Assembly: GCA_947574215.1 (NCBI GenBank)
Contig: CANPIX010000008.1
Span: 1 to 44,875, forward strand
Reading direction: 5' to 3'
Length of the DNA stretch: 44,875 nt
Source of the DNA: an uncultured Mycoplasmatota bacterium
GTDB lineage: Bacteria; Bacillota_I; Bacilli_A; RF39; UBA660
The notes beneath the pieces are model-generated. The model was given only the letters and a program-made list of their open reading frames with translations. It was not told where the DNA came from and did not search any database. Of this stretch, positions 23,751-36,066 are shown one piece after another. Positions within the stretch are counted from its first letter, which is position 1, and each line of letters opens with the position of its first letter. The position numbers and the translations under genes were made by a program.

Positions 23751-24998
23751 TTATCCCTGAATAATAAAGTTTGCTTCTGTCCAAGTCAATGGATAAATAT
23801 TATCACCTTTTGCATTCAATATCCAATTTTTTGCTTCTTCATTTTTTATATACACTTGTGCATCATCAGGCATGTTTTTAAATAAATCTGATCTAGGTGC
23901 TAAACTAGATGAAGAATTACTTTCCAGAACTTTTATAAATTCAAAATTAGATATATCTAATTTTTTTAAGTTAACATTACCAGAAAACATTCCACCCATA
24001 ACAAGTACTTGTTCAGTATTAAAGTGCCTTATATCCAACTGTGTCAGTTTTTCCATATTAAAGAACATTTGATACATTTTTTTTACATTAGAAGTGTCAA
24101 AACTAGACAAATTCAATGATGAAACGGAAATTCCTTTAAACATTCCTGACATATCTTGTGCATTTTTGGTATTAAAACTACTTACATTTAAATCAGTAAT
24201 TTTAGAGGCAAAACGAAACATCCAAGAAAAATCTTCAACATTACTGGTATCAAAAGTACTTAAATCCAAAGATGTCAATTGAGAACATTCAGAAAACATC
24301 CAGTTCATATAAACAACCTCACTTGTATCAAAATACTCTAATCCTTCTATACTTTCTAAATTATGAAATTGATTAAATAATGATGAACTATCTAAATTTG
24401 CTTTAATTCCACCATCGGATTGAATAAACAAAATATACTTTGTTTTATCATCTTCATTAGGTACCAAGTAACTCTTTACACTTTTACTACCTGTTTCTTC
24501 TACATCAAAAACAAAACTTGCGTTCTTCTTAGCACTAAAAGAAGGCTCAAAAACCACTTTAGTAATATTTTCTTTATATTGCCAAAAATCGATATTTTCT
24601 TCTCTTTTTTTTAGAATTCCTCGATTATCTACAAAAGATAGATTGCATTTTATCGAAGTAGACTTAAAATCACTTACAATTATAGACCAATTTTCATGAT
24701 CCCAACTTCCTGTAGCAGTAGATCCACAATCAACATTAACTTTTAAAAAGTTTGATTTTTTAGGAATTTCTTTTATAAACTCTCCATTTAAAGTCATAGC
24801 AATCTCTACATCACTTTTGGAAAAATTAGGAACAATTCCTTTTAAAATATTAAACTCCTTTTTCTCTTCGTAAAGAGCAAAAGTTTTATAAAATACAACA
24901 CTTCCAATAAGAAGAATAATGCCTACAAGTAACCCAATAATTTTCTTTTTTTGATTTAAATTTTTATCAAATTTTTTCAATTTTTTACCTCTTTTCAT
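23751..24998 (-). CDS. BspA-like leucine-rich-repeat (DUF285) surface protein
   Basis: This 415-residue protein has a basic N-terminus, one hydrophobic span at about 20-42 (IIGLLVGIILLIGSVVFYKTF), a beta-rich stalk with two or three cysteines, and from about residue 205 to 345 a series of 22-25-residue repeats. The repeat type is LDLSTFDTSNVEDFSWMF, LNVSSFNTKNAQDMSGMF, LNLSSFDTSNVKKMYQMF. This is the DUF285/BspA-like leucine-rich repeat of host-associated bacteria, often adhesive or immunogenic. There is no LPXTG, so anchoring is probably through the N-terminal span. The ATG at 24998 has AAAAGAGG-type purines downstream and a weak upstream site. Its promoter is excellent, and an XRE repressor operator fills the promoter spacer. 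Confidence 0.85.
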   Translation of the reverse strand: MKRGKKLKKFDKNLNQKKKIIGLLVGIILLIGSVVFYKTFALYEEKKEFNILKGIVPNFSKSDVEIAMTLNGEFIKEIPKKSNFLKVNVDCGSTATGSWDHENWSIIVSDFKSTSIKCNLSFVDNRGILKKREENIDFWQYKENITKVVFEPSFSAKKNASFVFDVEETGSKSVKSYLVPNEDDKTKYILFIQSDGGIKANLDSSSLFNQFHNLESIEGLEYFDTSEVVYMNWMFSECSQLTSLDLSTFDTSNVEDFSWMFRFASKITDLNVSSFNTKNAQDMSGMFKGISVSSLNLSSFDTSNVKKMYQMFFNMEKLTQLDIRHFNTEQVLVMGGMFSGNVNLKKLDISNFEFIKVLESNSSSSLAPRSDLFKNMPDDAQVYIKNEEAKNWILNAKGDNIYPLTWTEANFIIQG

Positions 24999-27027: not shown

Positions 27028-30000
27028 TTAACGATGTATTGTGTTATTTTCCTCAATTATTTCAAATGCTTCTATTTGATTTACTTCTAATTGCTCTAAA
27101 TATTTTTGTAATGCACCTTTCATTTTATTATAGCCTAATTCATTCATATTATCAGCAACATAATTATCGTGAGGGTCATTTCCTCTTGATTCATTTAATA
27201 TATTTTCCCCAAAATTCCACAAATAATAATTTTTTATAAATTCATCAAAATCTTTTCCTTCAGCAATTTTCAAAAAATTTTTAGCAGCAGTAACAAAAGA
27301 ACCACCATTTTGCAATATGAAGTTTTCAATTCCTACTCCACCGAGCCCTCCCTGAAAAGAATCACTTTGCTGCGATTTATAACATCCTGCTTCTCTTAAC
27401 ACTCGCTTTGCAATAATAATATTTCCTATAATCTGTTTATATTTTTTTTCATCTTGTTTTTTAATTGTGTTTAAATAATCGCATAAAGCCAAGTCTGTAG
27501 AATAAGTTATTTGATCTCGTTTTTGTACAAAACTAATATCAATTTTTAAAGATTCAGGAATATCTTCCACATAAGCTTGTTTTAATCTAAAATGACCATT
27601 TTTAACATCACTTTCATCTTTTTGGTGAAATGCATTTAATAAATCTTTTTTTAAATTATATAATTTTTTATTGTCAAATAAAAGATCTTTATCTAAGCGC
27701 ATCGTAAAATCAAAATCAATATCTTTAGGATCATAAGTACACCTACTTGTTGAACCAGTATAAAGGAATTCAACCGTTCCATTACTTATATCATTACTTA
27801 AACGATCTGTTAATATTAAATCATACTTTTCTATGACTTGTGCAACTGCTCTATAAATTGCATTTTTACAAATTTCTAAACTTGCTTTTTTTTCTTCTTG
27901 TTCTCTTAAAATAGAATTCACCTCGACTAAATCAATTTCTTTAGAAAAATGATAATTATTTTCTCCATAATAAGTTAAGCCTGACATTTTACTTCTTAAA
28001 TCATCATAGTCTTGTGAAGTAAATACAATTTTTCCATTAAAGTCTGCAATAGGTATATAAAAGCCATTCATAACAACCTCTAAACTTACTCTTGGATCAT
28101 AGGTTTCCATTAAAATACAATTAATTTCGCTAGATGCAAACCCTGTGCGGATTCCATAACAATCATCTTCTAATGTTTTAAAAATCTCAATTTTACTAGG
28201 ATCAAAAATATTTGGTACGTTATCTTCATTACTTTCCCTTGTAATTTGAAAACGCTCATCGTTTTTTAAAAGGAAAAAAATCGGTCCAAAACCCCATAAC
28301 CATGAAGAAGTATTTTTAATCATTTCTTCTATAGAATCTGTTTTATGAAGTATTCGAGAAACATCTGTATCTAAAGGAGTTCGGTCAGAATAAACTTTAC
28401 CACCCAAAAACTCTTTTGCAACACTACCATTTTGTAAAATAGTATTCAAATATCCAACATATGTAATTCCTTTTATAAAATCGCCTTCTTCTACTATAAC
28501 ATCTTTTTGAGAAAATAAACGATTTCTTTTGTCTGCGGCGCTTATTTTTGAATTTCGATAATTTTCAACTTCTTCTAAAGAATTAAATCCAGCAAAATGA
28601 AAATACATCTTTATGATTCGATCTATTAAATCACTATGACAATTATTAGGAATCGAAAACAATTGATATAAATTATTGATATCTTGTAAAATATTTCCTG
28701 TCATTAAATATTTTTTCTTTTCATTTTTTAAAGAAATATTATATAAAGTTTTTACATGCTGAACAAATTCTATCAAAATATTTTGATATTCACTACTTAA
28801 TTGCTCATAGGAAATCTTTCCTGAAGAAAGACTCAAAAATAAATGATTTCCTTTCTTTAAATTTTCCAAATACTTATTTAAAGATCTATTATTTGAACCT
28901 AAAGAAGCTCTTACTAAATCGGAAAATATAATAATATCACGCCATAAATCCTTTTTAAACATATTTTCTTTCAAATTATTCGGACACTTTTTCAATCTAG
29001 GTGAAATAATTCGATTATTAGAAAAATTATATTCATCATAGGAAGGATGAAAAAGCTTAAAAAACGAAAATATTTTGCCAACTACAGGTAAATGATTTTT
29101 TAAGAAAATATTTTCAATTTTCTTGAAGTCTTCTAAGAGATTTGAGCTTTGCATTAAATTCTGAAAAATCATTTCTTTAAATTTTTGTAACTCGATTGAA
29201 TTTGATTTTAAAAATAGCGTTGATAGTTTTACAAAGTTATCAATATTAATAGTCAAATTGTCATTCTCTAAAATATAATTACAAATTCCAATTGTAATAA
29301 AATCACATAAATTATCAAATTTTTGTACAACTTGTAAAAAATTTTTTTGTATTTCTTTTCGAGTAAAAAATGGAAATAAATCTATTTTTCTGTCAATCAA
29401 CTTCAAAAATTCTTCGTATTTTGTATTATATTTTTTTTCACAATCCAGATTAAAATTAATTATATTGTCAATGATCTCATCAGAAATATTTTCCTTATTA
29501 TACATTAAACTTAAAATTACATTTTCTTTTATAATTTTCGATTTAATTTGGGAACTTTTTTCTATAAAATCGCCAAATATACAAAGGTCTTCCTTTGTAC
29601 ACACAATCTCTAAAATATCTCGATGAACATCTGGATCAAATTTTTGTACAATTTGTAAAAAATTTTTTTGTAGTTCTTTTCGAGTAAAAAATGGAAATAA
29701 ATCTATTTTTCTGTCAATCAACTTCAAAAATTCTTCGTATTTTGTATTATATTTTTTTTCACAATCCAGATTAAAATTAATTATATTGTCAATGATCTCA
29801 TCAGAAATATTTTCCTTATTATACATTAAACTTAAAATTACATTTTCTTTTATAATTTTCGATTTAATTTGGGAACTTTTTTCTATAAAATCGCCAAATA
29901 TACAAAGGTCTTCCTTTGTACACACAATCTCTAAAATATCTCGACGAACATCTGGATCAAATTTAAGTATTTTTATAATTAAATCATCTGGAATATCATA

Positions 30001-31662
30001 ATTAAATAGCTTATATAATAAAACATTAAAATGCCCCTCCCCCAATGGTATATTTTCAGGATATTTCGAATAAACTGAAATGAATTTACTCAAATTTTTT
30101 TTACAATGAATTTGATAATTAGAATCTATTTTAGGTAGTTCAATAAAAAACTGTATAGAATCATAAGCTAGTTCATAAAAATTCTCAGTAAAACCATCTG
30201 AACCAAAATATTTTGATACATCCTGTTCTATTCTTGGTCGTACGGAACTAACTAATAAGTTTGGAAAGTCGAATACTAATTTTATATAATTTACTTCAGA
30301 AACACTAAAATTGTCTTCCCAATTAGAATCAATATAAGGAAACAAAATATTATATTTAAAATTAAATTTAATTTTTTGATAAAAAGCAGGTTTTACTCCC
30401 TTTTCATTAAAAACTTCACAAAAATCTTTAAATTCATAACGAATACAGTTCAAAAATATGTCTGAAATATTGTTATAATTTAATTCCCTACTAAAAAATT
30501 CTTTTTTTTCAATATTTTTTGGATTTATCAATTTATCTAATATTATAAAAAAACCAGCGTATCTACAATTCAATTGCTTTTGATTTGAGACCACAAAATT
30601 ACTAAAAGACGAATAGTTGTTATAACTAATATCTTCTGCTAAAATCAATTTTATAAAATGCTCTATAAAATCATTGTTAAAAAGCGATGATTTTGGAATA
30701 GCTTTTTCAAAATTCTCTTCAAAAAATTTTTTTACATTTTCTGGATTTTGATAAAAATCATTACGATCAAAATAATAATATTTAATAATTCTTATTATTT
30801 CATATACAGCATCCGAATTTAATTTTTCGGATAAATCTTTCCAATAAAATTCAGTTTCTGATTTATTTAGAATTATATTTAATATATCAATTGATGAACA
30901 ATCTATCTTATTTAAACAGATATATTTTTTGACAAAATCAAAATGACATTCATACAATTTATTAATATTTTCAGTAGTTAAAAATCCTAACTCATAAAAA
31001 AGTTTAGTCTTGATTTCTTGCAACTTAGATTTCATCAATAAACTGATTATTTCTTTTTGCGTTTTTAAAGGTTCATATCCTAAATCTTTAAAAAAAGAAA
31101 GACAAGTAGAAAATGCTAATAATTGTTTTTCATTTAACTCCTTACAGTATAGGAGGTATTGCTCAAGTTGTTCATTTATAAAAAGTTCAGTGTAAGTTTG
31201 TATATCTATAGTATTTACAATCATATTTCTATATTTTGGAAACTGAATTATTTTTTTCATAATATTTACTTTATCAACAAAATGAGTAATAGATTCGAAG
31301 CTATTCGTATCCAGTTCCATTTTCAGTAATTTAATAAAAGAATTTATAATTTCTTGTTCAAAAAAAGAATTATCTAAAATTTGACTAATTTTCACCCCGT
31401 TGTCTAACATATTTTGAATATCTCGATAACTAAAACTACTTTGGTATTTATCCTCGAATGACCAATTTATTTGGATGTTATCCGTATTGAAATATTTCAA
31501 ATAATTTCTTTTTTTACTTTCAATATATAATTTTAATATATCCTTATTTTGTAAATCAACTTTTCCTTGTTTTACTAATTTTTCAAAAGCAGAATAATCT
31601 CCCCTTGCAATTAATTTTTTGGCTTGCTCAATACGCAATTTTAAATTTAAATCTTTAAACAT
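27028..31662 (-). CDS. Giant 1544-residue protein with C-terminal CCA/OAS-like nucleotidyltransferase domain
   Basis: No known family accounts for the full length. Residues 1 to about 1000 are helical and lack signal peptide or membrane segments. They include a nearly perfect tandem duplication of 107 residues (about 568-674 and 675-781). A second region at about 1060-1270 is mixed alpha/beta (GDFIKGITYVGYLNTIL, GIRTGFASSEINCIL, MNGFYIPIADFNGKIVF). The C-terminal 260 residues carry a DNA-polymerase-beta-type nucleotidyltransferase motif. G1303-S1304 is followed after 11 residues by D1316-F-D1318 (GSTSRCTYDPKDIDFDF), and a third acidic strand, LKIDISFV, lies near 1372. GGLGGVGIENFILQNGGSF and GNDPHDNYVADNM follow, resembling the substrate domain of archaeal CCA-adding enzymes and OAS/CD-NTases. 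It is a candidate nucleotidyltransferase acting on RNA, protein or making a nucleotide signal. Confidence 0.7.
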   Translation of the reverse strand: MFKDLNLKLRIEQAKKLIARGDYSAFEKLVKQGKVDLQNKDILKLYIESKKRNYLKYFNTDNIQINWSFEDKYQSSFSYRDIQNMLDNGVKISQILDNSFFEQEIINSFIKLLKMELDTNSFESITHFVDKVNIMKKIIQFPKYRNMIVNTIDIQTYTELFINEQLEQYLLYCKELNEKQLLAFSTCLSFFKDLGYEPLKTQKEIISLLMKSKLQEIKTKLFYELGFLTTENINKLYECHFDFVKKYICLNKIDCSSIDILNIILNKSETEFYWKDLSEKLNSDAVYEIIRIIKYYYFDRNDFYQNPENVKKFFEENFEKAIPKSSLFNNDFIEHFIKLILAEDISYNNYSSFSNFVVSNQKQLNCRYAGFFIILDKLINPKNIEKKEFFSRELNYNNISDIFLNCIRYEFKDFCEVFNEKGVKPAFYQKIKFNFKYNILFPYIDSNWEDNFSVSEVNYIKLVFDFPNLLVSSVRPRIEQDVSKYFGSDGFTENFYELAYDSIQFFIELPKIDSNYQIHCKKNLSKFISVYSKYPENIPLGEGHFNVLLYKLFNYDIPDDLIIKILKFDPDVRRDILEIVCTKEDLCIFGDFIEKSSQIKSKIIKENVILSLMYNKENISDEIIDNIINFNLDCEKKYNTKYEEFLKLIDRKIDLFPFFTRKELQKNFLQIVQKFDPDVHRDILEIVCTKEDLCIFGDFIEKSSQIKSKIIKENVILSLMYNKENISDEIIDNIINFNLDCEKKYNTKYEEFLKLIDRKIDLFPFFTRKEIQKNFLQVVQKFDNLCDFITIGICNYILENDNLTINIDNFVKLSTLFLKSNSIELQKFKEMIFQNLMQSSNLLEDFKKIENIFLKNHLPVVGKIFSFFKLFHPSYDEYNFSNNRIISPRLKKCPNNLKENMFKKDLWRDIIIFSDLVRASLGSNNRSLNKYLENLKKGNHLFLSLSSGKISYEQLSSEYQNILIEFVQHVKTLYNISLKNEKKKYLMTGNILQDINNLYQLFSIPNNCHSDLIDRIIKMYFHFAGFNSLEEVENYRNSKISAADKRNRLFSQKDVIVEEGDFIKGITYVGYLNTILQNGSVAKEFLGGKVYSDRTPLDTDVSRILHKTDSIEEMIKNTSSWLWGFGPIFFLLKNDERFQITRESNEDNVPNIFDPSKIEIFKTLEDDCYGIRTGFASSEINCILMETYDPRVSLEVVMNGFYIPIADFNGKIVFTSQDYDDLRSKMSGLTYYGENNYHFSKEIDLVEVNSILREQEEKKASLEICKNAIYRAVAQVIEKYDLILTDRLSNDISNGTVEFLYTGSTSRCTYDPKDIDFDFTMRLDKDLLFDNKKLYNLKKDLLNAFHQKDESDVKNGHFRLKQAYVEDIPESLKIDISFVQKRDQITYSTDLALCDYLNTIKKQDEKKYKQIIGNIIIAKRVLREAGCYKSQQSDSFQGGLGGVGIENFILQNGGSFVTAAKNFLKIAEGKDFDEFIKNYYLWNFGENILNESRGNDPHDNYVADNMNELGYNKMKGALQKYLEQLEVNQIEAFEIIEENNTIHR
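29320..29961 (-). repeat. Two tandem 321-bp repeats inside the giant gene
   Basis: The segments 29320-29640 and 29641-29961 are direct repeats of 321 bp (107 codons). I count three substitutions by eye: a C/T near 29331, a T/G near 29353 and a T/C near 29623. The repeat is in frame and adds one helical unit. Near-identity in DNA, not only protein, shows a recent duplication. Confidence 0.92.
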
Positions 31663-35079: not shown

Positions 35080-36066
35080 TCAATCTTCTACTTTTATACT
35101 CCAGTATCCACCATTATCAGGTCCAACTCTTTCAATTATATTATTATCAACTAATTTTTTTAAATTATATTTAACACCATCAGATGTAATATTTAAAAAA
35201 CTAGCAAGTTCATTTCTTGTAACTTTAGGATTTTCTTTTATTAGCTCTATAATTTTTAATTGATTATTATTTAATTTTGTTTTTTGGGTAGTTTTCTGGG
35301 TAGCTTTTTCTAACGATGAGTGAATACACTTTAACATAAAATCTATAAATACATTCGCATTACCATTAACATGGCACTCTGCAATAGAATCATAATATTT
35401 TTGTTGATTTAAATATATTTCTTCTTCAATAGGAATATATTCAAACTTTGAATTCCAATCAGTTAAAATTAAACTTACCCAGAATCTAGCCATTCTGCCA
35501 TTACCATCACTAAATGGATGAATATATACAAAATAATAATGAAATATAGAGGATAAAACTAAAGGATGAATTTTATTTTCATTATCAATCATAAACTCAA
35601 ATAATTTTTTCATGAGAGATGGGACCAATATAGATTGCGGTGCTGAATAAATTACTTCATTTCCTTTTTTTACTCCTTCACCATGATTTCTATAATAACC
35701 ATTGTCATCATCAAAATACTTCATCATTAGTGTATGAGCTTTTAAAAAATCATCTTCATCTTTCCAGTTATATTCATTTATATGTTCATATAATTCATTA
35801 GCATTTTTGACTTCTTGAATTTCTTTTCTATCGCCTAAAACAAGTTTTTTTTCCACAATATTCTCAACTGATTCTATTGATAAAGAATTTGCTTCAATCG
35901 CTAATGATGAATGAATTGATCTAACCTTAGACTTAATTTGTAATTTCCTTTTTTTATCACTATCATCAACAATAATTAAATCAAGTTTTTTTTCAATTTC
36001 CTTTATAATTTTTTTATTATCATCTGTGATATAAAATACTGGTGTTATTGAAGCTATATTTTTCAT
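35080..36066 (-). CDS. Fic-domain protein (predicted AMP-transferase) with winged HTH
   Basis: Fic enzymes transfer AMP or other nucleotide parts to target proteins. This 328-residue protein has the complete active-site motif HPFSDGNGRMARF near residue 180 and the N-terminal inhibitory helix SSLAIEANSL near residue 55. There the usual [S/T]xxxE[G/N] glycine is alanine but the inhibitory glutamate is kept, marking a class II Fic. A flexible QKTTQKT linker leads to a C-terminal winged helix-turn-helix (about 265-320, KLNNNQLKIIELIKENP, VTRNELASFLNIT). The ATG at 36066 has GGAGGG before it. It ends in TGA. It lies in the island between uvrB and its detached 5' copy. Confidence 0.92.
   Translation of the reverse strand: MKNIASITPVFYITDDNKKIIKEIEKKLDLIIVDDSDKKRKLQIKSKVRSIHSSLAIEANSLSIESVENIVEKKLVLGDRKEIQEVKNANELYEHINEYNWKDEDDFLKAHTLMMKYFDDDNGYYRNHGEGVKKGNEVIYSAPQSILVPSLMKKLFEFMIDNENKIHPLVLSSIFHYYFVYIHPFSDGNGRMARFWVSLILTDWNSKFEYIPIEEEIYLNQQKYYDSIAECHVNGNANVFIDFMLKCIHSSLEKATQKTTQKTKLNNNQLKIIELIKENPKVTRNELASFLNITSDGVKYNLKKLVDNNIIERVGPDNGGYWSIKVED

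What the first reader, a model, noticed from the sequence alone, without database searches (positions are those of the whole stretch)
27028..31662. 1544-residue protein with a C-terminal CCA/OAS-like nucleotidyltransferase: candidate undescribed system
The last 260 residues contain a polymerase-beta-type nucleotidyltransferase motif (GS at 1303-1304, DxD at 1316/1318, third acidic strand near 1372), followed by a substrate-domain-like region resembling archaeal CCA-adding enzymes and OAS/CD-NTases. Bacterial CD-NTases and MenT toxins are much smaller. Here the domain ends a giant protein with about 1000 residues of helical repeats and a separate unknown alpha/beta region (1060-1270). The gene is neither a housekeeping CCA enzyme nor a known CBASS arrangement. 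Helical repeats could be a sensor or target-binding scaffold.
Basis: partly seen in the sequence, partly recalled or inferred. Interest (0 to 1): 0.75.

Follow-up and report, generated by a model that had tools for sequence, protein, structure and literature searches.

The report
Giant toxin-like protein with two enzyme folds
A gut bacterium encodes a 1,544-residue protein that ends in a previously undescribed pair of fused enzyme-like domains, one resembling NAD-using ADP-ribosyltransferases and one resembling the enzyme that rebuilds tRNA ends; the pair recurs in over 80 bacterial proteins, including giant secreted-toxin-like ones, so it is probably a mobile effector or toxin module.

Summary
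The ORF (27028-31662, minus) is intact. Its last ~300 residues are a pol-beta nucleotidyltransferase (NTase) of the class I CCA-adding/OAS/CD-NTase type: model pLDDT 90.9, pTM 0.90, Z 16.6 to archaeal CCA enzyme; G1303, S1304, R1307, D1316, D1318, D1375 identical in 82/82 homologues. The 'unknown alpha/beta region' (1052-1247) is ADP-ribosyltransferase (ART)-like (best Z 8.7 to tRNA 2'-phosphotransferase, 8.5 to DarT), with its own invariant residues but no recognisable canonical ART triad. Helical domain + ART-like + NTase (790-1544) form one conserved module in >80 proteins, mostly from gut Bacilli MAGs, also Clostridia and Saccharibacteria/Patescibacteria. In relatives the variable N-terminal scaffold also carries a different C-terminal domain, and a few relatives hold the module inside T7SS-type giant proteins. 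It is not the housekeeping CCA enzyme (a PF01743 enzyme is elsewhere in the genome); no CBASS partner or immunity gene recurs in Bacilli. Best reading: a transferable effector/toxin module that probably adds nucleotides to RNA ends. Activity, target and delivery of the window protein are inferred, not shown.

The parts
27028..31662 (-). whole gene, 1544 codons plus stop
29296..31662 (-). N-terminal variable scaffold, residues 1-789; distantly similar to N-termini of some other members (28% over 550 aa to L039)
29314..29934 (-). in-frame 321-bp tandem duplication within the scaffold (residues ~577-783), 99% identical copies
   Evidence: sequence
28513..29295 (-). helical domain of the conserved module, residues 790-1050
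   Evidence: secondary structure of model; conservation
27922..28509 (-). ART-like alpha/beta domain, residues 1052-1247; invariant G1060, D1061, G1079, T1095, D1098, D1100, G1174, P1204
27031..27933 (-). CCA/OAS-type nucleotidyltransferase domain, residues 1244-1544
27751..27756 (-). GS motif, residues 1303-1304
   Evidence: 82/82 identical
27709..27717 (-). DxD motif, residues 1316-1318
   Evidence: 82/82 identical
27538..27540 (-). third catalytic acid, D1375
   Evidence: 82/82 identical
27298..27351 (-). GGLGGVGIENFILQNGGS (residues 1438-1455), strongly conserved stretch after the NTase core, in the place of the class I CCA 'GxSGYxxExLxxxYGSF' motif (that motif recalled, not fetched)

Best explanation
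The C-terminal ~755 residues are a portable enzymatic effector module (helical support domain, ART-like domain, CCA/OAS-type NTase) that bacteria attach to different N-terminal scaffolds, in the manner of polymorphic toxins. The NTase most likely transfers nucleotides from NTP to an RNA 3' end (tRNA is the favoured acceptor), disabling it; the ART-like domain most likely binds NAD+, ADP-ribose or the RNA end and supplies substrate recognition or a second modification. Shown: ORF, folds (by prediction), invariance of both active-site-like residue sets, family distribution, swapping of C-termini on shared scaffolds in relatives, occurrence in T7SS-type giants. Inferred: catalysis, acceptor, target cell, and delivery of the window protein (its genome lacks a full EssC).
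For: NTase fold with archaeal CCA enzyme as top match, complete invariant active site, weak profile hits to cca_archaeal E 0.0013 and SMODS E 0.013 in single members. ART-like fold with Tpt1/KptA and DarT, which act on RNA and DNA, on top; pairwise hhalign to DarT aligns the motif-I helix (P 0.0024). Module at the C-terminus in 76 of 85 proteins. Toxin-like modularity: the N-terminal ~860 residues of L046 are 62% identical to L159, which ends in an unrelated domain. The module lies inside a 5,100-aa protein (L031) whose N-terminal, ART and HD segments match giants of the window's genus; those giants lie directly beside EssC (L171, L174) or within about 3.5 kb of it (L172, L173). A 6,816-aa protein (L035) combines it with C39/transglutaminase-like and ADPrib_exo_Tox domains. 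Patchy distribution: 17/193 family genomes, absent from the same-genus genomes listed; tandem paralogues in L071.
Against: No immunity gene beside the window gene or recurrently in Bacilli. The window genome and 7 of 18 other module-bearing genomes checked have no full-length EssC, so most members are not shown to be secreted. No catalytic or toxicity data. By eye an invariant Arg lies where DarT has its catalytic Glu, so ART activity may be absent. Z 8.7 is modest.
Confidence: 0.5

Rival explanations
1. Intracellular anti-phage (abortive infection) protein: the variable N-terminal scaffold senses a trigger and the NTase/ART-like module shuts down translation or makes a signal in the same cell.
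For: Most members lack a recognised secretion domain and immunity gene; scaffolds diverge fast while the module is conserved; patchy accessory genes; serine-recombinase genes near 5 of 85 loci.
Against: No PADLOC match; no defence-island neighbours recur; the module also sits in T7SS-type giants.
Confidence: 0.2
2. RNA-repair enzyme: the ART-like domain cleans 2'-phosphate ends (KptA/Tpt1-like) and the NTase restores lost 3' nucleotides (CCA-like), healing damaged tRNA.
For: Top folds are Tpt1 and CCA-adding enzyme; KptA and pol-beta/CCA NTases are both described as phage RNA-repair enzymes (PMC7824862, PMC9503650).
Against: Tpt1's N-lobe Arg-His-Arg residues (from general knowledge) have no evident counterpart, and motif I is K/R-G; no ligase, 2H or Macro gene recurs nearby; companions in the giants are toxin domains.
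Confidence: 0.12
3. Second-messenger synthase: the NTase makes a cyclic or linear oligonucleotide (CD-NTase/OAS-like) under control of the ART-like and helical domains.
For: CD-NTase structures at Z about 14 over ~248 residues; weak SMODS hits.
Against: No adjacent effector gene; CCA enzymes score higher; no PADLOC match.
Confidence: 0.12

Closest known systems
Archaeal class I CCA-adding enzyme (TIGR03671)
   Same: NTase fold and following helical region (Z 16.6, rmsd 3.1, 224 residues, 13% identity), GS/DxD/D active site, motif-level profile similarity
   Different: Aligns only to residues 4-252 of ~435 and the protein ends there, so the tRNA-binding tail is missing; fused to ART-like and helical domains; profile 17.6 bits against a cut-off of 281; the genome has its own PF01743 CCA-type enzyme
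CD-NTases (CBASS) and OAS
   Same: Same superfamily fold, Z about 14
   Different: No effector partner gene, fused in a giant protein, no PADLOC match
Tpt1/KptA RNA 2'-phosphotransferase and DarT DNA ADP-ribosyltransferase
   Same: ART-like fold of residues 1052-1247 (Z 8.7 and 8.5)
   Different: 6-11% identity; motif I is K/R-G; conserved TPxDxD and R1172 instead of a recognisable R-S-E or H-Y-E triad
MenT-type nucleotidyltransferase toxins (tRNA 3'-extending; PMC10435456, PMC11541572)
   Same: Proposed chemistry: NTase toxin adding nucleotides to tRNA acceptor ends
   Different: MenT are small toxin-antitoxin proteins; here a giant modular protein without an antitoxin gene; homology to MenT not tested
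Polymorphic toxin systems (PMC3482391) and T7SS giant toxins
   Same: Swappable C-terminal modules on shared scaffolds; module embedded in giants related to EssC-linked proteins
   Different: A CCA/OAS-type NTase plus ART-like pair does not appear in the abstract and passages read; the window protein has no recognised secretion domain or immunity gene

Membership tests
Class I CCA-adding enzyme | pol-beta NTase head fold with GS, DxD, third Asp | tested here: met
Class I CCA-adding enzyme | NCBIfam equivalog cut-off (281 bits) | tested here: not met
   best member 17.6 bits, E 0.0013
Class I CCA-adding enzyme | body/tail domains that bind the tRNA elbow | tested here: not met
   alignment ends at CCA residue 252 and the protein ends ~16 residues later
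Class I CCA-adding enzyme | sole/housekeeping CCA enzyme of the cell | tested here: not met
   PF01743 enzyme at G000:C19
CBASS CD-NTase | CD-NTase profile match | tested here: not met
   PADLOC no hit; SMODS below cut-off
CBASS CD-NTase | adjacent effector gene | tested here: not met
   window neighbours are uvrB and a pyrophosphatase gene; no recurrent neighbour in Bacilli
Polymorphic / T7SS toxin | shared N-terminal scaffold with interchangeable C-terminal domains | tested here: met
   in relatives: L046/L027 versus L159/L033; for the window scaffold only weak similarity
Polymorphic / T7SS toxin | secretion domain and apparatus | tested here: inconclusive
   giants L031/L082 share regions with EssC-linked proteins; the window protein has none and its genome (92% complete) has no full EssC
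Polymorphic / T7SS toxin | immunity gene downstream | tested here: not met
   none in the window or recurrent in Bacilli; a ~150-aa partner in Clostridia follows other proteins too
Polymorphic / T7SS toxin | toxicity of the module | not testable with these tools
   needs an expression assay
ART superfamily (Tpt1/DarT-like) | ART fold | tested here: met
   Z 8.7/8.5, list almost entirely ARTs; modest Z
ART superfamily (Tpt1/DarT-like) | catalytic triad (R-S-E or H-Y-E) or Tpt1 Arg/His set | tested here: inconclusive
   motif I K/R1064-G1065, conserved T1095/D1098/D1100/R1172; no reliable residue alignment
MenT toxin | MenT family profile | not tested
   no MenT sequence compared

The most novel reading that the evidence does not exclude
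A new two-enzyme module in which an ART-fold domain and a CCA/OAS-type nucleotidyltransferase act in sequence on the same RNA end (for example NAD+-dependent end processing or ADP-ribosylation followed by nucleotide addition), used as a mobile warhead in giant bacterial effectors.
Probability: 0.2. Interest if true: 0.85.

Novelty: new variant of a known kind. Interest (0 to 1): 0.6.

Why it matters
It defines an unannotated family (over 80 members here) that fuses two folds best known from nucleic-acid enzymes and recurs in little-studied gut Bacilli and in MAGs titled Saccharibacteria/Patescibacteria, partly inside T7SS-type giants. If active, it would add a CCA/OAS-type nucleotidyltransferase to effector chemistries and offer a directly testable tRNA- or RNA-targeting enzyme.

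Tried and rejected
Single-sequence Pfam, PADLOC and PDB sequence searches found nothing above cut-off; profile searches of PDB sequences gave only chance-level hits. Viral contigs, phages and plasmids: no relatives, so not phage cargo as far as these collections show. Housekeeping CCA enzyme rejected. CBASS rejected for lack of partners. HEPN_RiboL-PSP hit (E 2.8e-5 in 2 members) could not be placed in the members rescanned. hhalign of the ART-like domain to KptA and to the PF03496 ARTs of relatives gave nothing; to DarT a weak local match. The viral structure library gave no significant match. The module tree gave no clean evidence for or against transfer between phyla.

Full report
Observation. 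It lies between uvrB and a DHH/CBS/DRTGG-type (pyrophosphatase-like) gene in a 44.9-kb contig of a 1.1-Mb, 40-contig genome. On its own the sequence has no Pfam match above cut-off and no PADLOC or PDB-sequence match.

Family. Relatives occur in 17 of 193 genomes of the same family and 22 of 288 of the order sample; none of the other same-genus genomes listed has it. A scan of GTDB contigs gave 78 loci, mainly gut Bacilli MAGs, with Clostridia and MAGs titled Saccharibacteria/Patescibacteria (titles of MAGs can be wrong). A phylum-wide sample found it only in this family. The conserved part is residues ~790-1544; everything before varies.

Structure. An 82-sequence alignment gave a model of residues 790-1544 with pLDDT 90.9 and pTM 0.90. 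Residues 1244-1528 match archaeal CCA-adding enzymes best (Z 16.6, rmsd 3.1, 224 aligned), then poly(A) polymerase, Cid1 and CD-NTases. G1303, S1304, R1307, D1316, D1318 and D1375 are identical in all 82. Single members hit cca_archaeal (E 0.0013) and SMODS (E 0.013) at the same place. The NTase is therefore real and looks catalytically intact.

The alpha/beta region. Residues 1052-1247 were modelled alone (pLDDT 89). The best structural matches are yeast tRNA 2'-phosphotransferase (Z 8.7) and DarT (8.5-8.2), and almost every listed chain is an ADP-ribosyltransferase; a weak local profile match to DarT covers the 'ILxNG' helix. G1060, D1061, G1079, T1095, D1098, D1100, G1174 and P1204 are identical in 82/82. 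The usual ART triad is not recognisable: position 1064 is K/R (one H), and by eye R1172 falls where DarT has its catalytic glutamate. So 'ART-like fold' is supported; ART activity is open.

Architecture and context. The module ends the protein in 76 of 85 cases. N-terminal scaffolds are shared with proteins that end differently: L046 is 62% identical to L159 over 870 residues, but L159 carries a different C-terminal domain and no module. In L031 (5,100 aa) the module sits inside a giant whose other regions match giants of the window's genus (L171-L174). L171 and L174 lie directly beside an EssC gene; for L172 and L173 an EssC gene lies about 3.5 and 3 kb away on the same contig. L082 shares such an N-terminal region. 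L035 (6,816 aa) joins the module to C39/transglutaminase-like and ADPrib_exo_Tox domains. In Bacilli no neighbour recurs. In Clostridia a ~150-aa gene follows the module gene in 11 of 12 loci, but it has 2-15 copies per genome and follows many other proteins, so it looks like a general partner, not a specific immunity gene.

Secretion. Full-length EssC was found in 10 of the 19 module-bearing genomes checked, and a partial one in G085; 8 had only an FtsK-like segment, the window genome among them. Export of the window protein is therefore not supported.

Interpretation. The toxin-like modularity and toxin-domain company favour a portable effector module; the two folds favour an RNA end as substrate. 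Rivals are intracellular defence, RNA repair (KptA and CCA-type enzymes are both described as phage RNA-repair enzymes: PMC7824862, PMC9503650) and second-messenger synthesis. The literature searches found no description of such a fusion, within the limits of an open-access library. No activity has been shown.

Noticed in passing
window 29314-29934: In-frame 321-bp tandem duplication, copies 99% identical over 300 nt, inside the scaffold; recent repeat expansion or assembly effect.
   Followed up: partly
L093 9578-10030 and 11 similar ORFs: ~150-aa protein family in Clostridia with a basic/amphipathic C-terminal tail, downstream of the module gene and of many unrelated proteins, 2-15 copies per genome, no Pfam match.
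   Followed up: partly
L033 11631-16655, L157, L158, L159, L160: Same kind of N-terminal repeat scaffold ending in another unassigned domain (RLDDP...DCCQ...AQSWVWRN...FDNIE), no Pfam or PDB sequence match for the ones tested.
   Followed up: partly
L171, L172, L173, L174: Giant proteins in genomes of the window's genus with canonical ADPrib_exo_Tox (YRGV, STS/SCS, QQE) domains, beside or within about 3.5 kb of EssC genes; HD-like segment in L173 and L174.
   Followed up: partly
L071 6768-18071: Three tandem paralogues of the module protein.
   Followed up: no
L034 9443-10663: 407-aa stand-alone protein with the NTase and only the end of the ART-like domain, beside several 1,200-2,000-aa proteins.
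   Followed up: no
window 23754-24998 and 35083-36066: A DUF285 protein and a Fic/DOC protein with a winged-helix domain in the same window.
   Followed up: no
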